A stretch of 64,000 nt of DNA from Chloroflexus aggregans DSM 9485 (GTDB lineage Bacteria > Chloroflexota > Chloroflexia > Chloroflexales > Chloroflexaceae), in NCBI RefSeq assembly GCF_000021945.1, contig NC_011831.1:62001-126000 (forward strand), in the 5' to 3' direction. Both the position numbers and the translations under genes were made by a program. The stretch's first letter is position 1; each line of letters starts with the position of its first letter. This document shows, one piece after another, positions 48,523-64,000 of the stretch. Under the pieces are notes generated by a model. It saw only the letters and a program-made list of their open reading frames with translations. It did not search any database and was not told the DNA's origin.

Positions 48523-50742
48523 CTACGGGAGGGTGGCGCCGCCGTTGGTGAATTGCATAGTTTGAGTAATACCATTCTTTTCTACACAAACATGCCCGCT
48601 TGGTTGGGCGAATGTGACGACGATCTGGCCTTGTTCCTCGGTGATTGATCGGACTTCGGCGGTGGCGTAGCGAATGGTGAGATCGGGACGTATGCGCCAG
48701 TTGAGCGGTAAGATCGCTCCGCTGCGGGCCGGCAGATGGATCGGGTGGGCATCGAAGAGTTGCGTGCCGCGATACCTGATCTCGGTTGCCAGCGGGTCGT
48801 CGCCGTAGTGGTTGATGAAGAGGAAGTCGCCGTTCGGGCCACGACTGAGCCGCACATCGGCCCAGTGGCTGAGGGTGAATGGCGCTGGACAGCCGGCCCA
48901 ATCCGCCAGCGCGGTGAAGGCGCGTAGATCATCAAGGGCGATGATCGGGAAGGCTGCGCCGAGCACGATGATTTCACCGTTGCCAATCGGTTTGCGGAAT
49001 CCTATCGGCAGGCCATCAGCCGTCGCAAAGACCGTGCCGAGTTCGCCGTGGTAGGTCTGCACGAAACTGGCCGGAATATCAGCAATGTCAAAGACCTGCA
49101 CCCGGCGCGGGGAGAAGGGCGGGTCACTCGTGATCTGCACCGCTAGCGCCTGCGCCAGCTCACCCTCTGCGCGCAGGCGGCCAACGATCACCACCTTCCC
49201 GCCAGCACGAGCATAGTCCACTAGCTTGCGCTCGGTGGCCGGGTCGCTGGTGGTATCGAGCATGGCCCACATGAGCGGCATGCGGCCCGGATCGAGCGTG
49301 GCCTGTTGCAGGTCAACCGCGGTGAAGTCGCGATGGCTCAGCGCCAACCCGCGCGCGATGAAGTCGAACAGGATAACCTCGCGCTGATGGGTGATGATGT
49401 TGGTTGCTGCTTGGGTGCAAGGTTGGTTGACCTCGGTCATAAAATCATCTAAGCGGAAGCCGATAGCCGTTATCGTTTCTGGTCGTGCCAAGGTGAGTGC
49501 TTCGCCGTAGCTGACCAAGGTGCGCGACAGCAACGGGTAGCGGTGGTAGTGGCTGCGCAATGTGCCATCTTTGCGCACCGGGTGGCCCCAGTCGTGCCGC
49601 TTGACCGGACTAAGGAGCGGGTCGTTTTCGCCATCGAAAAAGAGGTAGTGGTTGATGGCGCGCATACCGTTCGATAGGCACAGGCGGGTATGGAGATCGT
49701 AGAAAGAACTCGACATATTGCTAAAGTCGAGGTTGCCGCCGGCCTGAAATTCAATCGAAAAGAGTGGTTGAGCGGGGTTTTGGATAGCAGCGGTCATGGC
49801 GTTGACCAGCACCAGTTGGTGAAAGGTGCCCTCGCCTATCTGGCTCGGATAGACATCGATGGCACTGATCACGTCGGGCATGCGTAACACATCGGCCAAT
49901 TGCGATAATCCGATTGGGAAGGTCTTACCACCGTTCGCAAAGCCGTGAATATTGATCACCGCCGGCACCTCAAGACCGTGCGCGCGGGCCGTTGCCAGCA
50001 TCCAGCTTGTGTAGTCGCGCAAATAGGTACGATAGAAACGGCGATAATCGGCCACTAGTTGCGCGCCTTCTGCGCCATCGGCGTAACGCAAGCGTTCGGC
50101 TAGCATCGCCGGATTGCTGGTTTGGTCAGCGCCGTACATTGCCTCTCGCCACGCAGCGAAATGCTCCATCGCCACCGGGTTGAGGTCGAAACTGTTGCGC
50201 ACCCAGTGCAGCATACCCATTTCATTATCGAGCTGCACCAGCACGATCGGGCCGCCGCGGGTGATCTGGCGCGATGCCAGCACGGCAAAGACAGCGCGGT
50301 ACCACTCAGCGACACAACTCAGAAAATCGGGATGCATGTAGCTGGCGATGTTTTCGGTTTCGCCGCGCTGGTTAATCAGTGCGATTTGCGGGTGGCGTTC
50401 AAAAACCCACGGCGGGATGCCTTCGTTGATCGTTTCGGCCATAATGTACGGGCCGGGACGGGCGATCACATAGAGACCCATACGTTGGGCTAGATCGAGG
50501 AATCCAGCAAGGTCGCGCATAGGATGGCTTGTGCCGTCCAGATCGACCAGCTCCGGTTGCGGTTGGTGCCAGAGCCACGGGATGTAGCAAGCAACTGCGT
50601 TAAACCCGGCTTGTACAATCAGGCTGAGCCGGCGTTCCCATTGATCGGCGGGGGTGCGGAAGTAGTGGAATTCACCCGCTTGCAGTAAAAGTGGACGTTC
50701 ATCGAGCCAGAATTGTTGGTTGTGAACGGTTAGTTTTGGCAT
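48523..50742 (-). CDS. GH35-like beta-galactosidase-family hydrolase
   Basis: About 739 residues. Start MPKLTVHNQQFWLDERPLLLQAGEFHYFRTP resembles the GH35 entry strand; the acid/base Glu is in GPIVLVQLDNEMG, and a nucleophile candidate is the Glu in PLFSIEFQAGG. Cytoplasmic (no signal). ATG 50742 is chosen; the extra 67 codons upstream lack protein character. Substrate may be a beta-linked oligosaccharide other than lactose. The last about 200 residues, with a beta-galactosidase-trimerisation-like part (VVIVGRLRAEGELAQ), fit GH35/GH42-like multi-domain enzymes. Confidence 0.8.
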   Translation of the reverse strand: MPKLTVHNQQFWLDERPLLLQAGEFHYFRTPADQWERRLSLIVQAGFNAVACYIPWLWHQPQPELVDLDGTSHPMRDLAGFLDLAQRMGLYVIARPGPYIMAETINEGIPPWVFERHPQIALINQRGETENIASYMHPDFLSCVAEWYRAVFAVLASRQITRGGPIVLVQLDNEMGMLHWVRNSFDLNPVAMEHFAAWREAMYGADQTSNPAMLAERLRYADGAEGAQLVADYRRFYRTYLRDYTSWMLATARAHGLEVPAVINIHGFANGGKTFPIGLSQLADVLRMPDVISAIDVYPSQIGEGTFHQLVLVNAMTAAIQNPAQPLFSIEFQAGGNLDFSNMSSSFYDLHTRLCLSNGMRAINHYLFFDGENDPLLSPVKRHDWGHPVRKDGTLRSHYHRYPLLSRTLVSYGEALTLARPETITAIGFRLDDFMTEVNQPCTQAATNIITHQREVILFDFIARGLALSHRDFTAVDLQQATLDPGRMPLMWAMLDTTSDPATERKLVDYARAGGKVVIVGRLRAEGELAQALAVQITSDPPFSPRRVQVFDIADIPASFVQTYHGELGTVFATADGLPIGFRKPIGNGEIIVLGAAFPIIALDDLRAFTALADWAGCPAPFTLSHWADVRLSRGPNGDFLFINHYGDDPLATEIRYRGTQLFDAHPIHLPARSGAILPLNWRIRPDLTIRYATAEVRSITEEQGQIVVTFAQPSGHVCVEKNGITQTMQFTNGGATLP

Positions 50743-50819
50743 GATGGCAGTATCCTCAGTGCCGCTTTCACGAAGCGTTACGGATGCGGGCACGCCGCCC
50801 GTGCTCCTGTCCGTCTTAA

Positions 50820-52058
50820 TCAGTGCGCTTTCTCGTGCTTGGTGAACCCCAACACGTTCAGCGCCCGTTGGATCGGCAAACTCGACGAATAGACATCCCA
50901 AATCAGGCCGCTGCGCGCATTTTCGAGCATCAGCAATGCACACCCTTTGTTAATCCCGTAAATCGTCCGGCTATACCACGGCGGCTTCACCGCGAGGTTA
51001 TAGGCATCGTAAAAGCCGTATGGCCCGCAAGTTTGCGGCTGCTCGTGGTAGAGGTAGTCAAGCATCGCCGGTACTTCAGCAGGTATGAATGGCATACAGG
51101 CAGTGGCATTGCTAATCGAGACCGTGCCGTCGGGTTCGATCGGTGCCAGCGCCGGCGGTGCGCCGGCAACGACGTAGCCGCGTGGGGTGTCGCCGCAGCC
51201 AATGCCCCAGCTCCGCTCGTGATAGGTGCGAAACTGATCGCGCAAGCTGAGGCAAAAGTCGCGGTTGACCAGCGCCGCTAGCCGCGCGTTGTTGAACCAA
51301 TCAACGCCATCGGGATCGCGATAGCTGCGGGTGTCTAGCCACGCTTCGGTGTACTGGTACGCGAAGAGCGTGCCGCCGGGGTTAATAATCACCGGCTGAC
51401 CTTGGTAGACGCCGATGTCACGGCGAAAGCCGCGGTAGAGCGCGCGAGCGGTGTTTGCCGGTACACAGAGTGCCGCTTGGATGTAAAGCAGCTTCTGCTC
51501 GGCGGCCATATCCCAATAGCTAATGAACCCCGGTGTATCGGTTACATAATCGCCATCGGCGTCAGAGTTATACGACATCCGCAAGACGGTATGGCCGGCG
51601 CGTTCGGTGATAAACGCCTTCCAATCGATCCGGTCGAGCAGGCGCATTGCTAGCTCATCAATCTCGGCGTCGCGAAAATAGGCGGCTGCGGTAATCACTC
51701 CGTTCAGGCAAAGGCCGGTATCGATCGTCGAGTATTCGCAGTGTTGCCAACGGGCTGCGGTATAGCGATCGAGAAAGTGGGCAAAGAAGCCGTATTGGTG
51801 CGGCACGCGCTCATAGAGCGTGCGGAGCGTGCCGCGGGTAATCGCCAGCCCCTCGGCGCGGCTCATCCGTCCGCGTTCGACTGCGATGACCCATGCGCTT
51901 AAGGCAAACCCAACCGAAGCAATCGAAGCGATGCGTGGACGATGGATGGCATCAACTGTCAGGCCATAACCGGGGCTGGCCGGATCGAGATTAGTGCCGG
52001 CCCGGAAAAAAGCCAGTGCCCCTTCAGTTTCAAATTCGCATAAGGTTGTTTCGTCCAC
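50820..52058 (-). CDS. Cytoplasmic Glycoamylase-domain (GH144-like) protein
   Basis: 412 residues, a predicted (alpha/alpha)6 barrel of the Glycoamylase domain (PF10091), which contains the GH144 endo-beta-1,2-glucanases and sophorohydrolases. Shared blocks with the lipoprotein paralogue at 53167: TNLDPASPGYGLTVD, RIASIASVGFALSA, EYSTIDTGLCLNGV and GPYGFYDAYNL. No signal peptide. GTG at 52058 follows TTGGAG, three bases after the lacI-type gene's stop. An intracellular hydrolase of imported oligosaccharides is likely, but the true substrate is not shown. Confidence 0.8.
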   Translation of the reverse strand: MDETTLCEFETEGALAFFRAGTNLDPASPGYGLTVDAIHRPRIASIASVGFALSAWVIAVERGRMSRAEGLAITRGTLRTLYERVPHQYGFFAHFLDRYTAARWQHCEYSTIDTGLCLNGVITAAAYFRDAEIDELAMRLLDRIDWKAFITERAGHTVLRMSYNSDADGDYVTDTPGFISYWDMAAEQKLLYIQAALCVPANTARALYRGFRRDIGVYQGQPVIINPGGTLFAYQYTEAWLDTRSYRDPDGVDWFNNARLAALVNRDFCLSLRDQFRTYHERSWGIGCGDTPRGYVVAGAPPALAPIEPDGTVSISNATACMPFIPAEVPAMLDYLYHEQPQTCGPYGFYDAYNLAVKPPWYSRTIYGINKGCALLMLENARSGLIWDVYSSSLPIQRALNVLGFTKHEKAH

Positions 52059-52061
52059 AAG

Positions 52062-53045
52062 CTACTCCAACGAGACCGGATGTTTAAGCGATGATGCCCG
52101 AGCGATAAACGAAGTGGGAATGCGTTGTGGTGGAAAGACCTTTTCATGCTCAAGGTAGCGCATGAGCCATTGGGCAGCCGTACCACCCCATTCCCGTCGC
52201 GACGCACCAATAGTCGAGAGCGGAGGTTGCACGTAGCGTGCAAGTAGAATATCGTCGCAGCCGACCACCGCAATGTCGCGCGGCGCTTCCAAGCCATGTT
52301 CGTGCATTGCTCGCATAAAGCCGATCGCCATCTGGTCATTGGCGCAAAAGACTCCTTCCGGCAGATCGCCTTCAGCGATAATCCGCTGCGCCGCCGCGTA
52401 GCCCGATTGCTCGGTGAAATTGCCGGGATAGACCCGCACCGAGAGCTGGTGGCGGGCGGCTTCGTTGAGAAACGCCTGCATACGTTCGTTATTGTCAAAC
52501 GAGTCGGGCGCGCCGGCCACGTAGGCCAAGTGGCGCAACCCTTGCCGGTAGAGATGGGCGAAGGCTTGGGCGACGCCTTGCCGGTTATCGAGCAACAGCG
52601 GGAAGACATGCTCCGCTTCGAGCTGCCGATCCATCACCACGATCGGGAATTTCGGCCCGGCTAACCGCAATATCTGCTCATCAGTGATACTCGTATCGAA
52701 AACGATAGCGCCGTCGACCTGTCGGTGGGTGAAGATGCGGCGCTCGACGCGCGTCTCCGGGCAGACGATTAGCTCATATTCGGTTGCCAGAATCACTTCG
52801 TGAATCCCATCGAGAATCTCTTCGTAGAACGCGCCGGCGAAACGGGTGATAAATACCCCGATCGTGCGCGATCGGCGCGCTTTGAGGTGGCGGGCAAAGG
52901 CATTCGGATGATAGTTGAGCTCCTCTGCCGCTTGCAGCACGCGCTGGCGCGTCTCTTCGCTGATGGTACCGGTGCGGTTGAGCGCGTATGATGCCGCGGT
53001 GACACTCACCCCAGCGCGGCGGGCAACATCTTTGATCGTGGGCAT
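52062..53045 (-). CDS. LacI-family transcriptional regulator
   Basis: 327 residues. The N-terminal HTH (TIKDVARRAGVSVTAASYALNRTGTIS) and hinge helix (YHPNAFARHLKARRSRTIGV) are clear, and the rest is a periplasmic-binding-like sugar sensor. GGAGGG precedes ATG 53045. Located among the enzymes, it should repress the locus and respond to a sugar from it. A candidate operator is at 53090-53103. Confidence 0.93.
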   Translation of the reverse strand: MPTIKDVARRAGVSVTAASYALNRTGTISEETRQRVLQAAEELNYHPNAFARHLKARRSRTIGVFITRFAGAFYEEILDGIHEVILATEYELIVCPETRVERRIFTHRQVDGAIVFDTSITDEQILRLAGPKFPIVVMDRQLEAEHVFPLLLDNRQGVAQAFAHLYRQGLRHLAYVAGAPDSFDNNERMQAFLNEAARHQLSVRVYPGNFTEQSGYAAAQRIIAEGDLPEGVFCANDQMAIGFMRAMHEHGLEAPRDIAVVGCDDILLARYVQPPLSTIGASRREWGGTAAQWLMRYLEHEKVFPPQRIPTSFIARASSLKHPVSLE

Positions 53046-53089
53046 TGTCCCTCCTGAATCAGCTACACGGTCTATCAACACGCTCTGGC

Positions 53090-53166: not shown

Positions 53167-54567
53167 TCACTTCGCCAATGTGAAACCCAGCCGCGCCAAC
53201 CCGGTCTGGATCACGGGATTAGCCATCATGACGCGGTGGATCAATCCATCTTGATAATTGGCCAGCATCAGCAAGGAAATGCCTTTATCGATCCCGATCA
53301 CATCAGTGGCGTACCAGTCGCGCGAGAGGTTGAAGGCGTCGAAGAAGCCGTAGCGCCCTTTCAGCCCTTCGAGCGAATAGTAGTAGCGCATCGCCTGCAA
53401 TGACTCTTCTGGCGTGAAAATGATCGAGCCGATTGCTCCTGCCGGTGGTACGGTGTCGTCGATATAGTGCGAACGGTTGTCATAACCTGACGGTGGCGCG
53501 CCGTACCGTCCTTCATAGCCGTTGGGGCCATCGCACGCGGTCAACCCCCACGCAGTGGGGCCAATCGTGGTGTATTTCGGGTCCATCGCGACGGCAAAGT
53601 CGTAGTGGGCACGTGAGGCGGCCACCGAGTTTTGATGCCAATCGACCCCCTTCCGGTCAACCAAGCCGCGAAAGTCGATCCACGCATGGCTGAACTGGTA
53701 CGTGAACAGGGAACCAAACCACGAGTGGATGAACGGCTCACCGGCACCGTACCGACCAACGTGGCGAATGAAGGTGTAGTAAGGCGTTTCATCGACCGGA
53801 TAGGTCGGCGATCCGGCTGCTAATACGTAGAGCATCAGTTGTTCGGCGTAAAAATCCCAGTGTCCGCTGAAGCCTTTTTCGGGGGTAAAGGCCATATAAA
53901 ACATCTGTCGATCCGAATCGAGGAACCATGGCCAATTGACTCGTTCGTAGATGGTAGTGGCTCGTGCTTGTACATCGTCGCCGAAATATTGCCCAACTGC
54001 TAGTACTCCCATCAGCAAGATAGCGGTGTCAATGCTCGATACTTCGCTCTGCCAGGCGCGCTGGCCCGTCTTGATATCGACAAAGTGATAGTAAAAGCCT
54101 TCGACCAAGGCCATCCGTTCCAGGGTCTGCAATGTGCCCAACGCCCGTTCGTAGGCTTGTTCGCGGGTAATGAAGCCACATTCGACTCCGACAATCAACG
54201 CGGTTAGCCCGAAGCCAACCGAGGCGATGCTGGCGATGCCGGTTGACCCCGGATAGCGGTCGCGGATCAGGCCAAAGCCGGGGCTGGCCGGATCGGTATT
54301 GGCCTGCTCCCAGAAAAAATCGAAGGCTGCGCGCAGTTCGTAGGCGATGATCTCGTCATCGCTGGCTGTGACCGGTACCGGCGTGATCGATGGCGCCATC
54401 GTGGTCGCGGTGGGTGACGATGCTGGCGTGGCTGGCAGCGGCGTGGGCGAAGCCGCCACCGGCGCAGGTGTGTCCGGCGGCGTAACATTTGGCCCCGCAG
54501 GTGCAGCGCAGGCGGCCAGCGCCAACCCAACTCCAAACAGAATGTGCCACAAGTATAGCTTATTCAC
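53167..54567 (-). CDS. Extracellular GH144-like (Glycoamylase-domain) lipoprotein
   Basis: About 466 residues. Starts MNKLYLWHILFGVGLALAAC, a lipoprotein signal with the lipobox LALAAC, then a Pro/Thr/Ala-rich linker (to about residue 70), and a Glycoamylase domain with NTDPASPGFGLIRD, GIASIASVGFGLT, EVSSIDTAILLMGV, and RYGFFDAFNLSRD. GTG at 54567 overlaps the stop of the upstream permease gene by 8 bp, so translation is coupled. It is anchored outside and likely cuts polysaccharide for the ABC importer. Same family as the cytoplasmic protein at 50820. Confidence 0.85.
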   Translation of the reverse strand: MNKLYLWHILFGVGLALAACAAPAGPNVTPPDTPAPVAASPTPLPATPASSPTATTMAPSITPVPVTASDDEIIAYELRAAFDFFWEQANTDPASPGFGLIRDRYPGSTGIASIASVGFGLTALIVGVECGFITREQAYERALGTLQTLERMALVEGFYYHFVDIKTGQRAWQSEVSSIDTAILLMGVLAVGQYFGDDVQARATTIYERVNWPWFLDSDRQMFYMAFTPEKGFSGHWDFYAEQLMLYVLAAGSPTYPVDETPYYTFIRHVGRYGAGEPFIHSWFGSLFTYQFSHAWIDFRGLVDRKGVDWHQNSVAASRAHYDFAVAMDPKYTTIGPTAWGLTACDGPNGYEGRYGAPPSGYDNRSHYIDDTVPPAGAIGSIIFTPEESLQAMRYYYSLEGLKGRYGFFDAFNLSRDWYATDVIGIDKGISLLMLANYQDGLIHRVMMANPVIQTGLARLGFTLAK

Positions 54568-55489
54568 CGGCGAGTCCTGATCGTTCAATCGATTCGACAA
54601 ACCAGCGTTGCAAGATGAAATACATCACCAGCAAGGGCAAAATGGTCAGAAATGTCCCGCTCATCTTGACCGCTTCGTTCAGGCGGTCGAAGATATTCAC
54701 CATACTGGCGGGGTAGAGATTCTCGTATGCTTGGGTAAATTTGGCCAGTTGCATCGGCAACGTCTGCATACCGCCTTCCAAAAACACTGTCGTCAGGTAC
54801 GTCTCGTTCCAATACCAAACCACCGAGAAGATGAACGAGACGATAAAGGCCGGCACTGCGCCGGGCAGCGCGATTCGCCAAAAGACGGTGAAATCGGACG
54901 CGCCATCGAGCCGGGCGGCTTCTTCGAGCGCGCGGGGTAGCGAGAGAAAGTTTTGGTAGAAGATGAGAATGAAGATCGCGCTCTTGAACCCTTGGCCAAA
55001 CACCGCCGGAATAAGCAGTGCCCAAATCGTTCCTAACAGATTGAGATAACGATAGTTGAGCATCTGCGGGATGATCGTATTTTGCGGTGGGATGACAAAC
55101 GTGGCGAAGATCAGGGCAAAGAGCAGCGGCTTACCCCAGAGCCGGTAGCGGGCCAAGCCATAGCCAACCAGCGCGCAGACCACCACCTGCAAGGCCGTCG
55201 GAGCCACACTGACCACAATCGTCGAGCGCAGCGTATCGAGGTAGTTGAGCACCCGGTATGCCTTCTGATAATTGCCCAGATACAGCTCGGTTGGCACCCA
55301 TTGCACCATTGGGTTGAGCAGATCATCTGGACTTTTGAAGCTGGTAATCGCCATAAATAGCAATGGGTAAAGGTAGACAAATCCGATGGCGATCAAGACG
55401 GCATAGAGCAAGACGGTCGGAATGATCCCCGTTCGGTTATGCGCGCCCCATGCCACTCGCCGTAGATAATCGAACTGTAGCCGCCGCAT
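54560..55489 (-). CDS. Carbohydrate ABC transporter permease (MalG-type)
   Basis: 309 residues, six membrane helices. The EAA loop for ATPase coupling is LPRALEEAARLDGASDFTVFWRIALPGAVPAF. Length and sequence order (PLLFMAITSFKSPDDLL) are MalG-like. Partner of the MalF-type permease at 55692, though an intergenic repeat of about 200 bp separates them. The ATPase is not in the window, so a shared MsmK/MalK-type ATPase elsewhere is expected. Confidence 0.9.
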   Translation of the reverse strand: MRRLQFDYLRRVAWGAHNRTGIIPTVLLYAVLIAIGFVYLYPLLFMAITSFKSPDDLLNPMVQWVPTELYLGNYQKAYRVLNYLDTLRSTIVVSVAPTALQVVVCALVGYGLARYRLWGKPLLFALIFATFVIPPQNTIIPQMLNYRYLNLLGTIWALLIPAVFGQGFKSAIFILIFYQNFLSLPRALEEAARLDGASDFTVFWRIALPGAVPAFIVSFIFSVVWYWNETYLTTVFLEGGMQTLPMQLAKFTQAYENLYPASMVNIFDRLNEAVKMSGTFLTILPLLVMYFILQRWFVESIERSGLAGE

Positions 55490-55691: not shown

Positions 55692-56561
55692 TCAATCCTT
55701 CACCCGCGGGCGTAGTACCATAAAGGTTGCCACTAACAACACAATCAACGCCAGCGAATACAAAAACGCCATCGCACTGGCGTAGCCAATCCCGCCTTCA
55801 ACGTCGTAAATGCGGGCAGCGATGTATTTGATCACCTTGTTCTCAGAAAAATGCGAGAGCGTAATAACCGTATACAGCGCATTGATCAGCGTGGTCGTCG
55901 TCAGCGCCGGCAAGGTAATCTTCCAAAACGTCTCCCACGCCGACGCGCCATCGACGGCGGCGGCTTCGTAGACGAAGCGGTCAATTTTTTGTAATCCGGC
56001 CAGATAGATCAGAATTTGCACACCCGAAAACCACAAAATCAGAATGAACGATGTCAACAGATACTGCACCGGCTCGCGCAACAGCGCCGGCAGTTGGGCG
56101 ACAAAAGCCGTTACCGCCGCTGATGACGCCACTTGTGGCGCGGAGGTTGCCCCTTGTGCGACCAGTTCGCCGATCACCGGCCCGCTGGTGATCACGACCG
56201 GCAAAAAGAAGATGGTGCGAAAGATGCTTCTGCCCCAAAATGGCACGTTCAAAAAGAGGGCGATAATCAGCGAAAAGATTAAGATGATCGGTACCGAGAT
56301 CGCCATTTCAATCAGATATTCAATCAATAATTGCACAAAGGTCGGATCAGTAAACAGAGCGCGAGTGTAGTTTTGCCAACCCACCGCTGCTAACTCAATC
56401 CCAGTCACCGCAACTTTGACGTTGCTCAGGCTGTATTGAAAGGTTTGCGCCAGCGGCGCTGCCGTAAACAGCGTGAAGCCGATGATCCATGGCAGCAGAA
56501 AGCGATAACCTTGCAGGTTTTCGCGCAGGCGCAAGCGCCGCCATAATTCGCTCTTGCCCAT
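55692..56561 (-). CDS. Carbohydrate ABC transporter permease (MalF-type)
   Basis: About 289 residues, six membrane helices. The EAA-type loop is FVYEAAAVDGASAWETFWKITLPAL. ATG 56561 follows AAGGAG. Between two copies of an interspersed repeat, and upstream of the MalG-type gene. Which solute-binding protein it serves is unclear, as a second permease pair (61895, 60991) is encoded in the same locus. Confidence 0.9.
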   Translation of the reverse strand: MGKSELWRRLRLRENLQGYRFLLPWIIGFTLFTAAPLAQTFQYSLSNVKVAVTGIELAAVGWQNYTRALFTDPTFVQLLIEYLIEMAISVPIILIFSLIIALFLNVPFWGRSIFRTIFFLPVVITSGPVIGELVAQGATSAPQVASSAAVTAFVAQLPALLREPVQYLLTSFILILWFSGVQILIYLAGLQKIDRFVYEAAAVDGASAWETFWKITLPALTTTTLINALYTVITLSHFSENKVIKYIAARIYDVEGGIGYASAMAFLYSLALIVLLVATFMVLRPRVKD

Positions 56562-56627
56562 GCCGGTGCTCCTTGATAAGGCTAAATCACGCTCGCTCTT
56601 TCGATCCGTGTGCATACGTCCCGATCC

Positions 56628-56746: not shown

Positions 56747-58876
56747 TCACCTCTCTAGCACCACCGCCTCGCGTGGCGGGATGGTTCTGCCGGCCAGCGT
56801 GACCGGCTGAGTGGTGTAGTTGACCACAATCCGTTTGCCGTTAGCATAGTCGGTGACGGCCACACCGGGCAGGGGCGTGGCGCGCGCGACGATGGCCGCT
56901 CCTTGCACCGGCCCCAGCACCCTAGCCAGCCGCGTATAGGCCCGTTGCACCTCGTCGCGCCATTGGCGATAGGCCGAGGTGTAAATCCAGTTCGAGCGGG
57001 TTTGCAACATCGCCGCCGTCGTTTCGTGGGTCAGCAGGAACGATGGATAAGCGCCATAATCGGCGTGGCGCAGCAGGTCTTCTTCCAGATTCGACGAGAA
57101 GTTGAGCGGCGGGCCGTAGTATGGGATATAACCGGCTAGTACGATCGGCACGAAGGGTACAGCTTGGGTGGTATAGATGTAGCCGCTATCACCGAGTGGC
57201 ATATCGTAGTAAGCACGGGTGGCCCCCCACAAATAGGTGTTGGGCCGGTAGATGGCGAAGGGGCCGTTGATCGCCAGCAGCTCTTGATAAGCTTGCAAGC
57301 TCGCTTCGCGGTTACGGCGGGTTTCTTCGCGAAAATCGCTGTAGAGTCGGAAGCCGATACCGTCGAGCGCGATGCCTAGACCGACAGGTTGGAAGGCTGC
57401 CCGCCAGGCGGTGATCCGGCGTTCGATGGCCGGCAGGGTGAGGTAGATCTGCTGCATACCGCGATGTGTACCGCGCACACTAGCCCGGTTAATCGCCATC
57501 GCTGTCTCGGCGCGGGTGTAGCCGCTCTCATCAATAATCCCGGCTTGTGGATCAACGTACAAACTCAGGGTTCCACCCTGCGCGGCAATTGTCTGGGCCA
57601 GTCGTTCCAAGTCTCCCCGGCTGCCCAGCGCTCCCTCGATCCGCAAGTCAAGCGGCAGCGGCGCGGTGGCGCCTTGCGGTTGCCAGCCGTAATAAACTAC
57701 TTCTACCCGTTTCGTGGGCAGATCGGCGAGTATGTCGGCCATCTCGGCGATGGTAGTCATCGGGATGGCCCGTTGCCAGAAGAGTACCCGCTCGCGTTCC
57801 GCCCCCAAAAACTCAACCCGCAACGGCACCTCGCCGCTAGCGGCGGTTGGCGGGTGCAAGACGCCTTGTTCGATCAGGTAGCGCTGGTATTCCCGCGCCA
57901 ATCCTACGTAATCCGCCTCGGCGCCGCTGAGGAAGCGGTAGTGCTGTACGATGTCGAAGGCGTTGGTCTGCGGCTGAATAACAGTTACTCCTGCACCGGC
58001 TCGATTGGTGGGTTGGAAGTAGCTCTCGTTGTAGATGAACAGGTTGTAGAGAAAGTTGAATTTGGTGATGATCCCTGCCGGGTGGGCCAGCAATTCGGCA
58101 AAGGCCGAGCCACGTTCAAGAATAGTGAGGAAGGCATGTTGCCCTTCACCATGTACCATCCCAAACACCGGCGCCGACAACGGGTAGGTAGGGCGGGTGT
58201 CGGGGTTGGTAGGCAATTCGCCGCGCATGCCCAGATCAGGACCGTAGTAGCGGCCATAGAACATGGTGCGGGCCGTGGTGCGTTCGGCGAAGGCGATCAG
58301 GCTGCCGCTGCCGTCGGGAATGAGCATATACCCCGGCGTGGCGGCTTCGCGGGTCGCGCCAAAGAAGGGGTAGAGGTGTAATTGGGCCAATCGGAAGTTG
58401 CCCGCTTCGCTGATCCCGCTGAACGGTACCGCCACCCGAACCCCTGTCGGTGTGAGTGTGACCTGTACCGTCACGGTGATGGCCGGTTCGGTAAAGGTGA
58501 CTTGCCCGCTAAACCCATCATTGAGCAGTGTAATCTCAATCCGATGATCGGCATTGGTGATCGATGCCCGCCGAGTATTGGTGCGCGCATCCATATACTC
58601 GATGCTGATCCCGCTACGTGCAAAGGCCGTCCACGTCCGGTTGAGCCGGTCGTCCGGTGTGACCTCATCGAGGTTCGATGACCAGAGATGCCCGCTGCGC
58701 CGGTCGAGCACCTTAAACGCCAGCGTTTCCCGGTTGAGATACAGCTCGAAACCGGCGTTGGCCGCCACCCGCTCGTAGCCGGCGGGGATGGCGGCGTCGC
58801 TCACGGCTTGGCTCGTGGCCGGCGCAGTTGCCAGCAATATTGCTACGATCAGGATGATGAATGGATACGCTTTCAC
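56747..58876 (-). CDS. Secreted DUF5696 family protein
   Basis: About 709 residues. GTG start at 58876 gives the signal peptide KAYPFIILIVAILLATAPATSQA; a longer frame from TTG 58900 is less likely. The body has GFELYLNRETLAFKVLDRRSGHLW, a beta-rich N-terminal half and a TIM-barrel-like second half (VEVVYYGWQPQG, LSLYVDPQAGIID, GIALDGIGFRLYSDF), as in glycoside hydrolase-like DUF5696 proteins. Function is not established in my knowledge. Encoded with NHL-TPR-Yip1 and permeases, which implies a part in glycan handling outside the membrane. Confidence 0.75.
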   Translation of the reverse strand: MKAYPFIILIVAILLATAPATSQAVSDAAIPAGYERVAANAGFELYLNRETLAFKVLDRRSGHLWSSNLDEVTPDDRLNRTWTAFARSGISIEYMDARTNTRRASITNADHRIEITLLNDGFSGQVTFTEPAITVTVQVTLTPTGVRVAVPFSGISEAGNFRLAQLHLYPFFGATREAATPGYMLIPDGSGSLIAFAERTTARTMFYGRYYGPDLGMRGELPTNPDTRPTYPLSAPVFGMVHGEGQHAFLTILERGSAFAELLAHPAGIITKFNFLYNLFIYNESYFQPTNRAGAGVTVIQPQTNAFDIVQHYRFLSGAEADYVGLAREYQRYLIEQGVLHPPTAASGEVPLRVEFLGAERERVLFWQRAIPMTTIAEMADILADLPTKRVEVVYYGWQPQGATAPLPLDLRIEGALGSRGDLERLAQTIAAQGGTLSLYVDPQAGIIDESGYTRAETAMAINRASVRGTHRGMQQIYLTLPAIERRITAWRAAFQPVGLGIALDGIGFRLYSDFREETRRNREASLQAYQELLAINGPFAIYRPNTYLWGATRAYYDMPLGDSGYIYTTQAVPFVPIVLAGYIPYYGPPLNFSSNLEEDLLRHADYGAYPSFLLTHETTAAMLQTRSNWIYTSAYRQWRDEVQRAYTRLARVLGPVQGAAIVARATPLPGVAVTDYANGKRIVVNYTTQPVTLAGRTIPPREAVVLER

Positions 58877-58909
58877 CCTCAGCCTCGTTGGTGGTACCAA
58901 GCAGCATTA

Positions 58910-60952
58910 TTACAGACCACGTAACCCGATCTCTTGCCAGACCGCGCTCACAAAGTCGAACAGTTGCCCAAACAGTAAGGACAAGATGTAGGCGGTCAAC
59001 GCCAGCATCGCCATCGTGAACAGCGTCTTGAGCACATTGCTCGTCGTTTCGGAAATGGTGTAGTTATGAATTTCCCGCACCATAATGAAAAGCATCAATC
59101 CAGTCCAGGCCAAGATGACCTGCTGCGAAAAGCTGACCAAAAAGACTTCGTTCAGTGTCAGCACATTCGAGGCCGCAATCACCACCGGCATGAACAGTGC
59201 ATAGGGAACGAGACTGTAGGCGCTGCCGATCACGACATCGCGCACCCGCCCTTCGCCGTCGCTGATGGTTGAAACCAGATAGTTAGCGGCGTTCCACAAG
59301 CCAAACAGCGCCACCAACAGCGCGATCTCGTTCTCGACCCGAATCTGGCCGGGATAGGCATACGGGTTGAATGGGAAGCCGATCAGGTAGAGCGAGGATA
59401 CATGCACTGCGATCACCCACAGGTAGATCAGCAGGGCAAAGCGCAGGCTGCCGCGCTGGCTGGCCTTGATGTAGTAAAAGCTATCAACCGGGTGGCGCAC
59501 GAAGCGCAGCAAGAAGATCGCGTCATCGACCAGCCGGTACCGACGCAGCCGGCGCATCCCGTCACGCAATGGCGTTAGCCAGCCGTGCCGGCGCTCGAAC
59601 CGGCGGAAGACGCTCTGCCCAAGTGCGGCCAGCGTCACCGCCACGATGAACGGGCCGAGGTACTGCTGCAACACCGCATTGCGCAGCTCCCAGAAGGCTT
59701 CCGAATAGCCGTTCCGGTCTTCGGCGTAGCGGTAAGCGGCCAGCGCAGCAGGGTAGTCTCCCGCTTTGAAATAGGCGTCGGCCAACCCCTGATAGGCCAT
59801 GATGAACGAGCCGTTGTAGTTGAGCACTTGTTCAAAGTAGGGTTTCGCTTCACGGTAGAAGCCGGCCAAATAGAGCCGCATCGCGCGATGCACGGTCTCG
59901 GCGAAGGCAGTCGTTTGGTAACGGATCAGAGCATTCTTCTCTTTGTCAAGCACATAGATTGTATCGCCGTAACGGGCAATACCGGTCGGATTAATGAGTG
60001 TACCGCGGCGTTGGTCGCCGTTGTCATGGGCATTGAACATAAACAGCAGGGTGCCGTTTTGGTCATACTCGAAGATACGCCCTTCACCGTCAACCACCAC
60101 CAGCAACCCTTCGGTATCGACATAGATGTCGCGGAACGAGGTCGATCCGTAGATGGTTGGGAAGATATTCCTCCCTGCCACCGTAAATTTGCGAATACTT
60201 TGATCGGCGAAGGTGCTGGCAGTGAGAGTGTAGAGCATTGATTGGCGATCAATGGCAAGGTTGGAAGGTGAGGCAGCTTCATTGCGTACCAGTTGAGCCA
60301 GTTGCTCTTCGCTCAGAAACATGCGCTGCAAGATCATGCGCAGCGACATCTGGGCAGTGTTGGCGGCGAAGTTGCCGATGAAGCGTCCGTCGGGGTTGAG
60401 CTGGATGACCCCTTGCACCGAGCCTTCGCTAATCACATAGAGATTTTTGCGCCGGTCAACTGCCACTTTACGCGGCAAGAAGGTGCGGTTCTTGCCGAAG
60501 AGCGGTTCGCTGGGCCGGCCAAATTGATGGCGCAACGTGCCGTCGGCGGCAAAGACCACGATCTGATTGAGGCCGGCATCGGCGACGTAGACCGTCCCTT
60601 CATCATCGACAAACACGCCGGTGGGCTTGTTCAGCACCCCTTTGCCATATTCCGCCGCCACGGCCAGCGTCGCGTCGAGCCGCACCACCCGCCCGTTGCC
60701 GGTATCGGCAAGATAGATCACGCCATCTGGCGTCACAAAGAGGTCTTCCGGTGCGTTCACCGGTAAGTTAATCTCATCCGTCGGGATGTAGGCGTCTTGG
60801 GTCATATACAGCTTACCGCCGGGACCGGGAGTCCACGTCACGTAGGGCGTGTCGGCCCGCGCCGATGGCGTGAGCAACGCCAATCCTAGCGCCAACCCGA
60901 TGATCGCGCCGATCAAAAACCCTCTTCGTTTGCGGGTACGCATCAGTGTCAT
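58910..60952 (-). CDS. NHL-repeat/TPR/Yip1 membrane protein
   Basis: About 680 residues. Signal sequence to about residue 35, then an extracytoplasmic NHL beta-propeller ([49 protein letters not shown]) to about 330, a TPR pair ([39 protein letters not shown]) near 360-420, and a C-terminal Yip1-like domain with several membrane helices from about 440 on. This domain order is unusual. Lies between a permease gene and the DUF5696 gene. Possibly senses or scaffolds transport; no function is known to me. Confidence 0.75.
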
Positions 60953-60990
60953 GCGGTTGCCTCTGCGTTGACCCACGCTCGCTGACGAGC

Positions 60991-61893
60991 TTACTTCAAC
61001 CCCGAATGCGACATCGTGCTCATCACTTGGCTCTGCAACAGGATAAAGATGATCAGATTGGGCAGAAAAACGATTAACGAAGCAGCAGCGGCCATCCCCT
61101 GGCCGGCGACCAAATTGGCTCCCGCCGTGGTTGAGGTCAGGCTGGACAGATAGAAGGCGAAGGTCTTGAGCTGTTCGTCATTGATGTACATCGCCGACGT
61201 ATCCACGTTATTCCACGAGGCCTGAAAGGCGAGAATGGCAATCGTCGCCAGTGCCGGTCTGGTTAGCGGCAAGATGATGTGCCAGTAGATTTGTAGATCG
61301 CTGGCCCCGTCAATTTGGGCGGCTTCGATCATCTCGTTGGGCAACGCATCCATAAACTGTTTGAGTAGGAACAAACCGACCGGCATAGCCAGCGTCGGCA
61401 AAATGTGTACCCAGAAGGTATTGAGCAGGCCAAGCTGCTGGATAATCAGAAAGCGCGGGATCGTCACCGCCACCGGCACAAACATAAGCGCGACGGTGTT
61501 GATCGCAAACAGCGTATTCTTGAGCCGGAATCGCTTCTTCGAGAGTGCAAACGCCGCTGTCGAGCCGACTCCCACCGAGGCCAACACGGTCAAGAGGGTT
61601 ATCATAACGCTATTGAAGAGGTAGCGGCTCACCGGTACTTCTGAGATTGACAGGCGGGCAAAGAGATCGGTAAAGTTCTTGAGCGTTGGCCGCACCACGA
61701 AAAAGCGTGGTGGATACGCAAACAACTCCTCTGGCGGCTTGAAAGCGTGCGAGAAGATAAAGACAATCGGCAGCAGCATAAAGGCTGCCAACGGAACCAG
61801 CACCAGATAAAACTTGAGCTGGCTCGGATGGAACCCGCGCGGGTTCATGCCGCTGTCACGCAGACTATAGCTCAACCAGTGTTTGCGCCTCAT
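60991..61893 (-). CDS. Carbohydrate ABC transporter permease (MalG-type), second set
   Basis: 300 residues, six membrane helices; coupling loop [30 protein letters not shown]. Its start follows one base after the stop of the MalF-type gene at 61895. The N-terminus contains a longer basic segment. Together they make a second permease pair of the locus. Confidence 0.9.
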
Positions 61894-61894
61894 C

Positions 61895-62809
61895 TCAATC
61901 CTCGCGGAACAGTTTGTTCGCCAGCCGGTTAAACAGCAACACCATCAACAACAGCACCACCGAAACGGCGGCGGCGTAACCCATTTCGTAGCGTAGAAAG
62001 CCGTAGTCTTCGATATGGTTGACAATCAGTTGGCCGGCGTATTGTGGTGTCGGGTTGCTACCTGACAGGGCAACCCCGATAGTACCGGCCTGAAACGCGC
62101 CGACAATTGCCATTACCGCGCCAAACAGCATCTGCGGCTTCATTGATGGGATGGTGATGTAGATGATCTCTTGCCAGCGACTGCTGACCCCATCGAGCGC
62201 GCCGGCTTCGTATAATTCGGGATTGATGTCGAGCATGCCGGCCAGCATGGCCAAAAAGCCGACTCCCATACTGCTCCACAAGGTGACGATGATCATAATC
62301 GTCATCAAATACTCTGGCGATTGCAGCCACTGGATCGGCGCTTGAATCAGGTTCAAGCTGAGCAGAAAACTGTTGAGGTAGCCGTTCTGATCGCCGCTAA
62401 ACAGCGTCTGCCAGACCACCGCCATCGCTACGCCGCCGGTCATCGACGGCGAGTAGAGGATAAGGGCGAAAATGGTGCGCGGCGTGCGCGGCAATTGGGC
62501 CAACATCCACGCCAGCAAAAAGGCCAGCACATAGCCCCCCGGCCCGACCAGCACCGCAAACTGGATCGTGTTGGGCAAGACGTAACGCATAAAGATGTCG
62601 TCTTGGGTCAGCAACACGATATAGTTGAGTAAGCCGTTGAATTGCGGCGGCTGGATCGAGTCGAAAAAGGTGAACGAGAGCAAGAAGGCTGCCAGCACCG
62701 GAATCGCGATAAAGATGGTGAACAGCACCGCATACGGGGCAATGAAGCCGTATGCGCTCGCCTCTTTGCGCCACTGTCTGCTTAGTTGGCTGCGCCACTC
62801 AGTTTGCAT
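61895..62809 (-). CDS. Carbohydrate ABC transporter permease (MalF-type), second set
   Basis: 304 residues with six membrane helices and the coupling loop [30 protein letters not shown]. Its ATG at 62809 overlaps the solute-binding protein gene's 3' end by 11 bp, so these genes are translationally coupled and form one transporter. Confidence 0.9.
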
Positions 62810-64000
62810 GCGCCATCCACTCCTTCACCGTCTCGATAGTCGGGATCGTCATCGTGCGCACCCGCTCGCCATTGCGGATGTAGCCGAACTCGGTCATCTT
62901 GCGCACGATCTCGCGGTTGATCACCGTCACCGCATTGTCGATCGCGACGCGCGGGTTAGCTCCCTGAAAGACGATCCGGTTCCAGACGTTGCTCAACTCG
63001 CGCTCTTGCATATAGCTGCCCGGCAGCTTGATCGGCTCTTGCAGCCATTGCCACTGCTGCAAAATCACGTCGCGGTGCGTCGCCGAAATCGGGGTAAAGC
63101 GAAACGCCTCGAGGTTCGCTGAATTCCACAAATATTCCAACCCAAAATTCATAATTAATTCTTGTTGGAAGGCGACCTGAGTCTCGGTTGACATCCACCA
63201 CTTGAGGAAGGCCCAGCCCTGTTGCGGCTTATCGGTGTTGGCAAACATCATCGCCGCCTGCGCCGAGCCGGTCGCATAGCGCAACTGCCTGCCATCAGGC
63301 AAGACGGTGGCTGGGTAGAGGGCGATATCCCACAACCCATCGATCTCCGGCGCCGCAGTGAGCAATTTGAGGTAGGTTTCAAAGTTCGAGATGCCGACCG
63401 GCGTTTCACCGGCGCGAAAACTGTCGTAGAAACTGGCCGTGGTCAGCGGCATGCCGTAGATGGTGAAACTCTCGGCCATAAACCGGATCGCCTGAATCGC
63501 TTCGTCCGACCCCAAGCCCGACATGCCATCGGGTGTGTAGAGCGACGCGCCGTAGTTGAAGAGGTAAGGGGCCGTGACCAGATAGCCCTTCATGCCGCCG
63601 CCGCTTGAGAGCGGCGTGTTGTAGTTCATGCCGAAACGCTGTAATTCGGGCAAAATCTCTAATACTTCATTCCACGTTTGCGGCACCGGCAAATTCAGTG
63701 TTTCCAGAATATCTTTGCGATAGAACGTCACCCAAAAATCTTGCGTTTCAGGAATGGCGTATACCGAGTCGTTAATGATGTAGCTCAAGAGCGAGCCGGG
63801 GGCATAGATGCGGATGAAGTGGTCAAAGTCAGGGAAGCTGCGCAAATCGTAGAGCGCATTGCGGATCGCCAGCTCATACGGGATGTTGGTGCTGACACCG
63901 AGCGCAATATCGGGTTGGGTGCCGGCGGCGCAGGCCAAGATCAGCTTCGATTCGTTGGGCATGATCGAAAACTTGACCTTGATCCCGCTTTGTGGTGTGA
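62799..64000 (-). CDS. Extracellular solute-binding protein, family 1 (partial at window edge)
   Basis: The 3' part of a solute-binding protein (at least 400 residues in the window). The frame stays open to base 64000, so the start and signal sequence lie beyond. It shows family-1 features: a TQPDIALGV hinge-region word, [22 protein letters not shown], and [25 protein letters not shown]. Binds an oligosaccharide for the permeases at 61895 and 60991. Only this one SBP is visible for two permease pairs. Confidence 0.92.

What the first reader, a model, noticed from the sequence alone, without database searches (positions are those of the whole stretch)
56747..60952. NHL-TPR-Yip1 fusion coupled to a DUF5696 protein
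One polypeptide puts an outer NHL propeller and TPRs before a multi-span Yip1 domain, directly followed by a secreted TIM-like DUF5696 protein. I recall similar DUF5696/YIP1/permease neighbourhoods in Paenibacillus. This suggests a conserved but unstudied module associated with sugar ABC importers.
Basis: partly seen in the sequence, partly recalled or inferred. Interest (0 to 1): 0.7.

Follow-up and report, generated by a model that had tools for sequence, protein, structure and literature searches.

The report
Conserved seven-gene sugar-import module
The two odd genes are the core of a seven-gene machine, kept together in distantly related bacteria, that probably captures and imports sugar chains (here probably beta-1,2-glucan), and one of them is an enzyme-shaped protein that seems to have lost its enzyme activity.

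Summary
Window 58910-60976(-) encodes signal-anchor, NHL propeller, TPR, TM and Yip1 in one chain; 9 bases later 56747-58900(-) encodes a secreted DUF5696 protein. Yip1 lies directly upstream of DUF5696 in 144 of 145 testable loci (138 of 139 without six duplicates) and two permease genes follow in 138 of 139, over Chloroflexota, Bacillota and Mycoplasmatota. The usual core is SBPbig-permA1-permA2-NHL/TPR/Yip1-DUF5696-permB1-permB2; in 27 loci NHL and Yip1 are separate abutting genes. Neighbouring enzymes differ: beta-1,2-glucan-type here, GH43, arabinofuranosidase, GH2, GH26 and others elsewhere, none in some Chloroflexota. DUF5696 has the GH129 fold (Z 28), but none of 133 non-redundant members has the exact GH129 Asp/Glu pair: probably a pseudo-glycosidase. 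DUF5696 and SBPbig mostly lack lipoboxes, which suggests that the NHL-TPR-Yip1 membrane protein holds them. A published Caldicellulosiruptor bescii operon, xloEFG-X-GH129-axoFGE, induced on xylan, has the same order and was read as two transporters plus enzymes. Best reading: a composite glycan ABC importer with a membrane scaffold and a non-catalytic glycan receptor. Conservation is shown; mechanism is inferred.

The parts
58910..60976 (-). NHL propeller + TPR + TM + Yip1 integral membrane protein (688 aa; ATG alternative at 60952)
56747..58900 (-). DUF5696 protein (717 aa), secreted, GH129-like fold, D513 kept, acid/base position is Y551
61895..62809 (-). ABC permease permA1 (EAA-type loop kept)
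60991..61893 (-). ABC permease permA2 (EAA loop kept)
55692..56615 (-). ABC permease permB1 (EAA loop kept)
54560..55489 (-). ABC permease permB2 (EAA loop kept)
62799..64000 (-). SBPbig, C-terminal part (951 aa in all; gene runs to contig position 127654, outside the window): long N-terminal region with a sub-threshold CBM35 match, then an SBP domain
53167..54600 (-). PF10091 lipoprotein, probable endo-beta-1,2-glucanase (accessory, substrate-specific)
52062..53081 (-). LacI-family regulator (accessory)
50820..52058 (-). second PF10091 protein (accessory; relatives show no lipobox, 0 of 42)
48523..50943 (-). GH35 protein, best solved relative a beta-1,2-glucosyltransferase (accessory)
46272..48380 (-). 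GH3 beta-glucosidase, near full-length match to Lin1840 (accessory)

Best explanation
The two genes belong to one composite glycan importer of the CUT1 ABC type, here probably for beta-1,2-glucan oligosaccharides. SHOWN by sequence: a core of SBPbig, four permeases in two pairs, NHL-TPR-Yip1 and DUF5696, kept mostly in one order over three phyla, with enzymes swapped around it. SHOWN: DUF5696 has a GH129-type fold and lacks that family's catalytic acid pair; SBPbig and DUF5696 mostly carry an N-terminal hydrophobic segment but no lipobox. INFERRED: the NHL-TPR-Yip1 protein is the membrane scaffold. Its propeller and TPRs outside hold SBPbig and DUF5696 over the permeases, and its Yip1 helices pack in the membrane between or beside the two permease pairs. 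INFERRED: DUF5696, whose gene sits where an SBP gene would sit for the second pair (DUF5696-permB1-permB2), is a non-catalytic glycan receptor, its old active-site pocket now a binding site tuned to each locus's sugar. Captured chains are passed from SBPbig and DUF5696 to the permeases, probably powered by a MalK-type ATPase encoded elsewhere, and degraded inside (here GH94, GH3, GH35 and a PF10091 protein).
For: Linkage: Yip1 upstream in 18/18, 76/77, 10/10 and 40/40 loci; two (once three) permeases downstream in 17/18, 71/71, 10/10 and 40/40. Co-occurrence in 400 Chloroflexota genomes: all 28 genomes with a strong DUF5696 (E<1e-90) have the NHL/Yip1 protein, and of 29 with it (E<1e-25) only G308 (69% complete, fragment at a contig end) has no strong DUF5696, taking the two draws to be the same as the handles suggest. 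All 23 SBPbig-positive of 281 Chloroflexota genomes are in the DUF5696 list. Natural fusion: 113 fused, 27 split with the two genes abutting (-133 to +9 bases) in all 27. Pseudoenzyme: exact D513+E551 in 0 of 133, acids at both columns in 3; D and E within one or two residues in 12 or 14; three GH129-like outgroup proteins keep D and E. The pocket varies with context: D/Y in 54 of 62 loci with PF10091 or GH35 genes, 10 of 70 others. Lipobox-like: SBPbig 7/119, DUF5696 13/147, SBP2 69/94, PF10091 GA1 group 42/52. In five genomes of one Chloroflexota genus DUF5696 carries extra hydrophobic stretches just after strand beta-4, two above threshold in four of them and one in the fifth. Mirror-tree partial correlations over 92 loci: permA1-permA2 0.60 and permB1-permB2 0.40 (known partners), then DUF5696-SBPbig 0.35, NHL-SBPbig 0.29, NHL-permB1 0.29, DUF5696-NHL 0.27, DUF5696-Yip1 0.26. 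Substrate. In a published C. bescii operon of the same order the locus is induced on xylan.
Against: No physical interaction was tested. D513 (nucleophile position) is kept in 70 of 133, including the window, so an altered mechanism is possible. In 10 of 36 testable Bacillota loci the permA pair is not directly upstream; of 32 with longer flanks six have SBPbig downstream and two have none in range. Deep Chloroflexota modules have housekeeping neighbours (RelA/SpoT, RNase J, a tRNA synthetase) and no sugar enzyme or SBP2 label near them, so a glycan substrate there is not shown. SBP2 in the C. bescii-type locus also lacks an obvious lipobox by eye, so a missing lipobox is not special to SBPbig and DUF5696 there. 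Mirror-tree values are confounded by shared inheritance and location, and Yip1-SBPbig is -0.14. All four window permeases keep EAA loops, which also fits two separate transporters. L062 has DUF5696 and permB but no Yip1, permA or SBPbig upstream.
Confidence: 0.5

Rival explanations
1. Two independent CUT1 transporters (SBPbig-permA and SBP2-permB) sit side by side, DUF5696 is a real secreted glycosidase acting through residues other than the GH129 pair, and NHL-TPR-Yip1 merely anchors it. This is close to how the C. bescii locus is annotated (XloEFG, AxoFGE, GH129).
For: EAA loops in all four window permeases; an SBP2-labelled ORF in 98 of 149 regions, and further SBPs among flanking genes (12 of 85); GH129-type fold; published annotation.
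Against: 0 of 133 members keep the exact D/E pair and the residues vary with neighbours; in 12 deep Chloroflexota regions (L044-L055) no SBP2 was detected while downstream permease genes were present in all 12 (a divergent SBP or one outside the stretch could be missed, and ten flanking ORFs scanned held none); two separable transporters would not need so constant an order over three phyla.
Confidence: 0.28
2. NHL-TPR-Yip1 is a sugar sensor or regulator: the propeller reads glycan outside and the Yip1 part signals or gates the permeases inside.
For: Conserved loops on the predicted inside (the 460-510 region and ISDGEGR); outward propeller plus multi-span domain.
Against: No Pfam signalling domain in the protein; the LacI gene near it is not a constant neighbour; NHL and Yip1 are separate genes in 27 loci.
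Confidence: 0.12
3. The Yip1 protein is an assembly factor that helps insert or pair the four similar permeases correctly and leaves the finished complex.
For: Position between the two permease pairs; Yip1-type proteins elsewhere belong to membrane trafficking and biogenesis (recalled).
Against: Does not explain the usually fused, well-conserved outward propeller and TPR; ordinary CUT1 pairs assemble without it (recalled).
Confidence: 0.08

Closest known systems
Caldicellulosiruptor bescii xylan degradation locus xloEFG-X-GH129-axoFGE-xyn... (PMC8579813)
   Same: The operon is induced on xylan, and a separate msmK ATPase is described.
   Different: The paper (passages and section 10 seen) treats it as two transporters plus CAZymes; X is unnamed and the GH129 protein is not discussed in what I saw. 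In L202 it has Ser/Thr at the two catalytic columns. Substrate xylan, not beta-1,2-glucan.
GH129 glycosidases (NagBb 5wzq, ZgGH129 5opq/8rzk)
   Same: Full-length fold; Z 27.9-28.4, 551-575 residues aligned, rmsd 3.5-4.0 A.
   Different: 12-15% identity; DUF5696 lacks the Asp/Glu pair, and almost always the Asp before GW (2 of 133) and the HD motif (H in 1, D in 12 of 133).
Listeria innocua beta-1,2-glucan cluster (Lin1839-Lin1841)
   Same: GH3 near full-length match to Lin1840; the SBPbig SBP domain has Lin1841 as best solved relative (43.6 bits).
   Different: Lin1841 is an ordinary-sized SBP and the known cluster has one transporter (recalled); [quoted passage not shown]
Ordinary CUT1 importers (MalEFGK type)
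   Same: PF00528 permeases with EAA loops, SBP_bac_1 binding proteins, a MalK-type ATPase encoded elsewhere.
   Different: Two permease pairs in one unit, plus an NHL-TPR-Yip1 protein and a pseudo-glycosidase.

Membership tests
CUT1 ABC sugar importer | MalF/MalG-type permeases (PF00528) with EAA loop | tested here: met
   family-wide loose EAA-like pattern in 101/105 permA1, 102/105 permA2, 105/131 permB1 and 121/131 permB2
CUT1 ABC sugar importer | extracellular solute-binding protein | tested here: met
   SBPbig and SBP2 match SBP_bac_1
CUT1 ABC sugar importer | MalK/MsmX-type ATPase powering it | tested here: inconclusive
   one OB_MalK protein in the genome at C1:345579, far from the locus; use by this module not tested
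GH129 | Pfam GH129 model (PF11308) matches the window protein | tested here: not met
   hmmscan at E<=1 gave only DUF5696
GH129 | GH129 fold | tested here: met
   model pLDDT 92; Z 28; Foldseek E 8e-32
GH129 | catalytic Asp nucleophile and Glu acid/base | tested here: not met
   window D513 kept, Y551 at the Glu column; exact pair 0 of 133
DUF5696 (PF18952) | match over the curated cut-off | tested here: met
   546.6 bits, cut-off 25.6
Yip1 (PF04893) | match over the curated cut-off | tested here: met
   37 bits, cut-off 28.6; L202 relative 77.6 bits
beta-1,2-glucan utilisation locus | endo-beta-1,2-glucanase homologue | tested here: met
   PF10091 proteins, best solved relatives 8xul and others, GH144-type 5gzh among them (that 5gzh is GH144 is recalled); C. 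aurantiacus Chy400_4164 is used as an SGL in PMC12102758 (passage); that it is the orthologue of 53167-54600 is inferred from position
beta-1,2-glucan utilisation locus | beta-1,2-oligoglucan phosphorylase of GH94 | tested here: inconclusive
   GH94 present; nearest to the cyclic glucan synthase GH94 domain, not SOGP
beta-1,2-glucan utilisation locus | import of beta-1,2-glucan shown by experiment | not testable with these tools
   five PDB entries of a close SBP2 relative exist (22hh-22hl), ligands not seen

The most novel reading that the evidence does not exclude
A new architecture of ABC glycan importer: two permease heterodimers work as one machine around an NHL-TPR-Yip1 scaffold, and a glycosidase fold that lost catalysis has replaced or joined the solute-binding protein as glycan receptor for the second pair. 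It handles chains too large for ordinary CUT1 importers and has spread across phyla with interchangeable enzymes.
Probability: 0.3. Interest if true: 0.85.

Novelty: new variant of a known kind. Interest (0 to 1): 0.64.

Why it matters
ABC sugar importers are textbook machines with one binding protein and one permease pair. A unit with two permease pairs, an unnamed scaffold and an enzyme-shaped receptor, present in distantly related bacteria and in several copies in some genomes, would be a widespread uptake system that annotation now splits into two transporters, a supposed GH129 enzyme and a hypothetical protein. It gives DUF5696 and a bacterial Yip1 protein a concrete testable role, and it warns against counting DUF5696 as an active glycosidase.

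Tried and rejected
Ordinary enzyme: considered first for DUF5696; set aside because the catalytic pair is missing in the members examined. D522, kept in 110 of 133, could still serve an unusual mechanism; D/E614, kept in 132 of 133, lies on the helix before the last barrel strand in the model, so I judged it structural. I could not inspect coordinates.

Chance linkage or local peculiarity: rejected. One recent transfer of a block: not a sufficient explanation, since sequences are far diverged (median corrected distance 0.86-1.88 among 92 loci). SOGP-type GH94: not the nearest solved relative.

Searches that gave little: GH129 model PF11308 in 201 Chloroflexota genomes (2 weak hits; one of them, L205, served as outgroup) and in 299 genomes of the phylum of G402 (none, and no control rang); paper searches for DUF5696 (0 papers), YIP1 with ABC terms, NHL+Yip1+ABC, Chloroflexus and solute-binding terms (whose listing held PMC12102758), Chy400, GH129/pseudoenzyme (which led to the C. 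bescii paper), Athe gene numbers, XloEFG, Yip1 domain+NHL terms (0 papers). PMC4867992 (passages) has one GH129 mention that does not concern this module. PHROGs gave one weak propeller hit. The tolerance-0 line is a script error (whole sequence searched) and is not used; the exact count of 0 comes from the line above it. The propeller fills the fold search of the NHL-TPR-Yip1 model, so the Yip1 part was not tested against known folds.

Sampling: one search kept the best 80 of 242 confirmed matches found with one peptide pattern, so it leans to relatives of the query. Phylum searches scored at most three candidates per genome for DUF5696 and two for the NHL/Yip1 profile. I fetched 20 Chloroflexota regions and 40 Bacillota regions chosen from the places listed. 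L056 (no module) was left out of the tallies. The flanking-gene Pfam tally used 85 of 185 listed ORFs, with ten Chloroflexota ones checked later. Lipobox and hydropathy tests are simple patterns, not a signal-peptide predictor, and their sets contain the six duplicate loci.
Full report
OBSERVATION. ORF 58910-60976(-) is one chain with an N-terminal hydrophobic segment, NHL repeats (Pfam 5.4e-13), TPR-like repeats (under Pfam's cut-off) and a Yip1 domain (37 bits, cut-off 28.6). ORF 56747-58900(-) is DUF5696 at E 1e-163. The AlphaFold2 models are good: mean pLDDT 88.3 for the first, 92.0 with pTM 0.91 for the second. The propeller is a clear NHL propeller (Z up to 31.8). Hydropathy and charge averaged over 68 aligned sequences put residues 38-439 outside and the charged 460-510 region inside, followed by about five membrane spans. 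The genome is a single contig of 4,684,931 bases; I take it for Chloroflexus aggregans from its recalled size only.

NEIGHBOURHOOD HERE. Reading upstream beyond the window the order is GH94, lipoprotein-like SBP2, SBPbig (951 aa), permA1, permA2, NHL-TPR-Yip1, DUF5696, permB1, permB2, a PF10091 lipoprotein, LacI, a second PF10091 protein, GH35, GH3. [quoted passage not shown] other beta-glucosidases score higher over part of it), SBPbig's binding domain nearest to Lin1841, though weakly, and SBP2 a close relative of five deposited structures, 22hh-22hl. Here the substrate is therefore most likely beta-1,2-glucan.

CONSERVATION. A first survey of 400 Chloroflexota genomes found DUF5696 over cut-off in 32. 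One scan of genome contigs gave 242 confirmed matches, of which the best 80 loci were kept: Chloroflexota, Bacillota and Acholeplasma-type bacteria (Paracholeplasma is Mycoplasmatota). A survey of 398 genomes of the Paenibacillus phylum found it over cut-off in 39. Profile scans of 19 Chloroflexota regions, the 80 loci, 10 paralogous regions and 40 Bacillota regions gave: Yip1 directly upstream of DUF5696 in 18/18, 76/77, 10/10 and 40/40; NHL upstream in 17/17, 74/75, 10/10 and 38/38; two permeases (three in one locus) downstream in 17/18, 71/71, 10/10 and 40/40; a permease pair upstream in 16/16, 68/70, 8/9 and 26/36; SBPbig upstream in 15/15, 65/65, 8/8 and 24/32, with six more downstream and two not found (denominators are loci with enough sequence). 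Six loci occur in two sets, so Yip1 adjacency is 138 of 139 distinct loci. The exception, L062, has unrelated genes upstream.

Nine Bacillota genomes whose sampled module showed no SBPbig directly upstream all hold at least one SBPbig: in G608 it is the copy beside the module, in G797 and G643 a single copy on another contig, and in the others several copies, some of which belong to other modules or are fragments. So the SBPbig-permA part can sit apart from the rest.

In the Chloroflexota survey, 28 of 28 genomes with strong DUF5696 have the NHL/Yip1 protein, and only one further genome (G308, 69% complete, contig-end fragment) has the latter alone (counted by me at E<1e-90 and E<1e-25; the other 15 of the 44 genomes match the NHL part only). 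SBPbig was found in 23 of 281 genomes, all in the DUF5696 list. G055, DUF5696-positive, is not in that list; its contig ends just upstream of permA2 and I do not know whether it was drawn.

The NHL and Yip1 parts are one gene in 113 loci and two genes in 27; in all 27 the two genes abut or overlap. This is a natural fusion. Paralogous modules occur: three DUF5696 genes in Paenibacillus darwinianus, five in a Lachnospiraceae MAG, three in Paracholeplasma (one with an internal TGA), one in Listeria newyorkensis.

SUBSTRATE RANGE. Many loci in Chloroflexus, Anaerolineae, Bacillaceae, Listeria newyorkensis and Acholeplasma-type bacteria carry PF10091, GH35, GH94 or GH3 genes; by profile label 74 of 149 regions have a PF10091 or GH35 gene. 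Others do not. Of 85 flanking proteins scanned (of 185 listed), the recurrent families were further SBPs (12), oxidoreductases (4), GH26, GH43, arabinofuranosidase and GH2 (3 each), GH32, GH28, GH30 (2 each) and others. The deep Chloroflexota modules (L044-L055) have no SBP2 and no such enzyme label near them; ten flanking proteins checked include RelA/SpoT, RNase J, a tRNA synthetase, a polysaccharide deacetylase and other genes without an evident link to the module. The core is thus general and the enzymes are interchangeable; for the deep Chloroflexota the cargo is unknown.

DUF5696. The model matches GH129 over its whole length (5wzq Z 28.4, 559 residues, rmsd 3.9, 14% identity; 5opq and 8rzk likewise; GH101 and GH36 further off). 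By sequence the profile reaches ZgGH129 and NagBb at E 5e-4 to 0.02. 8rzk is the D486N mutant by its title; that D486 is the nucleophile, and the pair D435/E478 in NagBb, are recalled. In an alignment of 133 non-redundant DUF5696 proteins with three GH129-like proteins found in Chloroflexota (L033, L034, L205; L033 is the same protein as L056:8591-10438, which matches DUF5696 at 2e-25 and GH129 at 2.5e-11), the outgroup keeps D at column 513, E at 551 and HD at 448-449. DUF5696 keeps D at 513 in 70 of 133, E at 551 in 14, H at 448 in 1; acids at both columns in 3, the exact D/E pair in 0. Allowing one or two residues of slip, 12 or 14 of 133 have D and E nearby. The window has D513 and Y551; D/Y marks 54 of 62 loci with PF10091 or GH35 genes but 10 of 70 others. 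I read this as a pocket tuned to substrate, not a conserved catalytic centre. The counter-reading, a changed mechanism, is not excluded.

ANCHORING. With a simple pattern, lipoboxes were seen in 7 of 119 SBPbig and 13 of 147 DUF5696, against 69 of 94 SBP2 and 42 of 52 of the GA1 group of PF10091 proteins; 104 of 119 SBPbig and 129 of 147 DUF5696 have an N-terminal hydrophobic segment, and about 1% have another. Uncleaved signal anchors are possible. In five genomes of one Chloroflexota genus the DUF5696 barrel carries inserted hydrophobic stretches just after strand beta-4 (two above threshold in four genomes, one in the fifth), a hint that this face lies at the membrane. Partial mirror-tree correlations over 92 loci recover the permease partners (0.60, 0.40) and next link DUF5696, SBPbig, NHL, Yip1 and permB1 (0.26-0.35); permA1-permB2 is 0.23 and Yip1-SBPbig -0.14. 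This is weak evidence, since genes that travel together and sit in the same place covary anyway.

PRIOR WORK. PMC8579813 (passages and section 10 read) lists the C. bescii operon xloEFG-X-GH129-axoFGE-xynF..., induced on xylan, in a locus described as two CUT1 transporters plus CAZymes. So the order is in print for one organism. A description of X and 'GH129' as a module conserved over phyla was not found in the library by my searches; most subscription papers are not held there.

VERDICT. The linkage is real and strong. The most likely role is a composite glycan importer with NHL-TPR-Yip1 as scaffold and DUF5696 as a non-catalytic receptor. Conservation about 0.95 certain; DUF5696 non-catalytic in most members about 0.7; scaffold role about 0.45; single machine rather than two transporters about 0.5.

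Noticed in passing
L028-L032, L055 (five genomes of one Chloroflexota genus): DUF5696 carries inserted hydrophobic, membrane-span-like stretches right after barrel strand beta-4 (two above threshold in four genomes, one in L032; L028 and L055 are the same genome).
   Followed up: partly
L033, L034; L056:8591-10438: A 615-629 aa family bridging DUF5696 and GH129 that keeps the catalytic Asp and Glu; the L056 copy stands without the import module. A possible active cousin of DUF5696.
   Followed up: partly
[quoted passage not shown] a stand-alone beta-1,2-glucan phosphorylase of another type is possible.
   Followed up: partly
L062:2854-5082: The only locus with DUF5696 and permB but no Yip1, permA or SBPbig upstream; rearrangement or misassembly of a metagenome contig.
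   Followed up: partly
L202:8597-10798: Caldicellulosiruptor-type DUF5696, apparently the protein called GH129 in print, has no acid at either catalytic column (Ser, Thr), so annotation as an enzyme is doubtful.
   Followed up: partly
L171-L173, L176, L177, L187, L189: Bacillota with NHL/Yip1-DUF5696-permB and no SBPbig-permA directly upstream; the genomes hold one to eleven SBPbig matches (some are fragments or in other modules), so one core might be shared by several capture proteins.
   Followed up: partly
L044-L055: Deep Chloroflexota modules lie among genes such as RelA/SpoT, RNase J and a tRNA synthetase, with no SBP2 or beta-1,2-type enzyme label nearby; what they import is unknown.
   Followed up: partly
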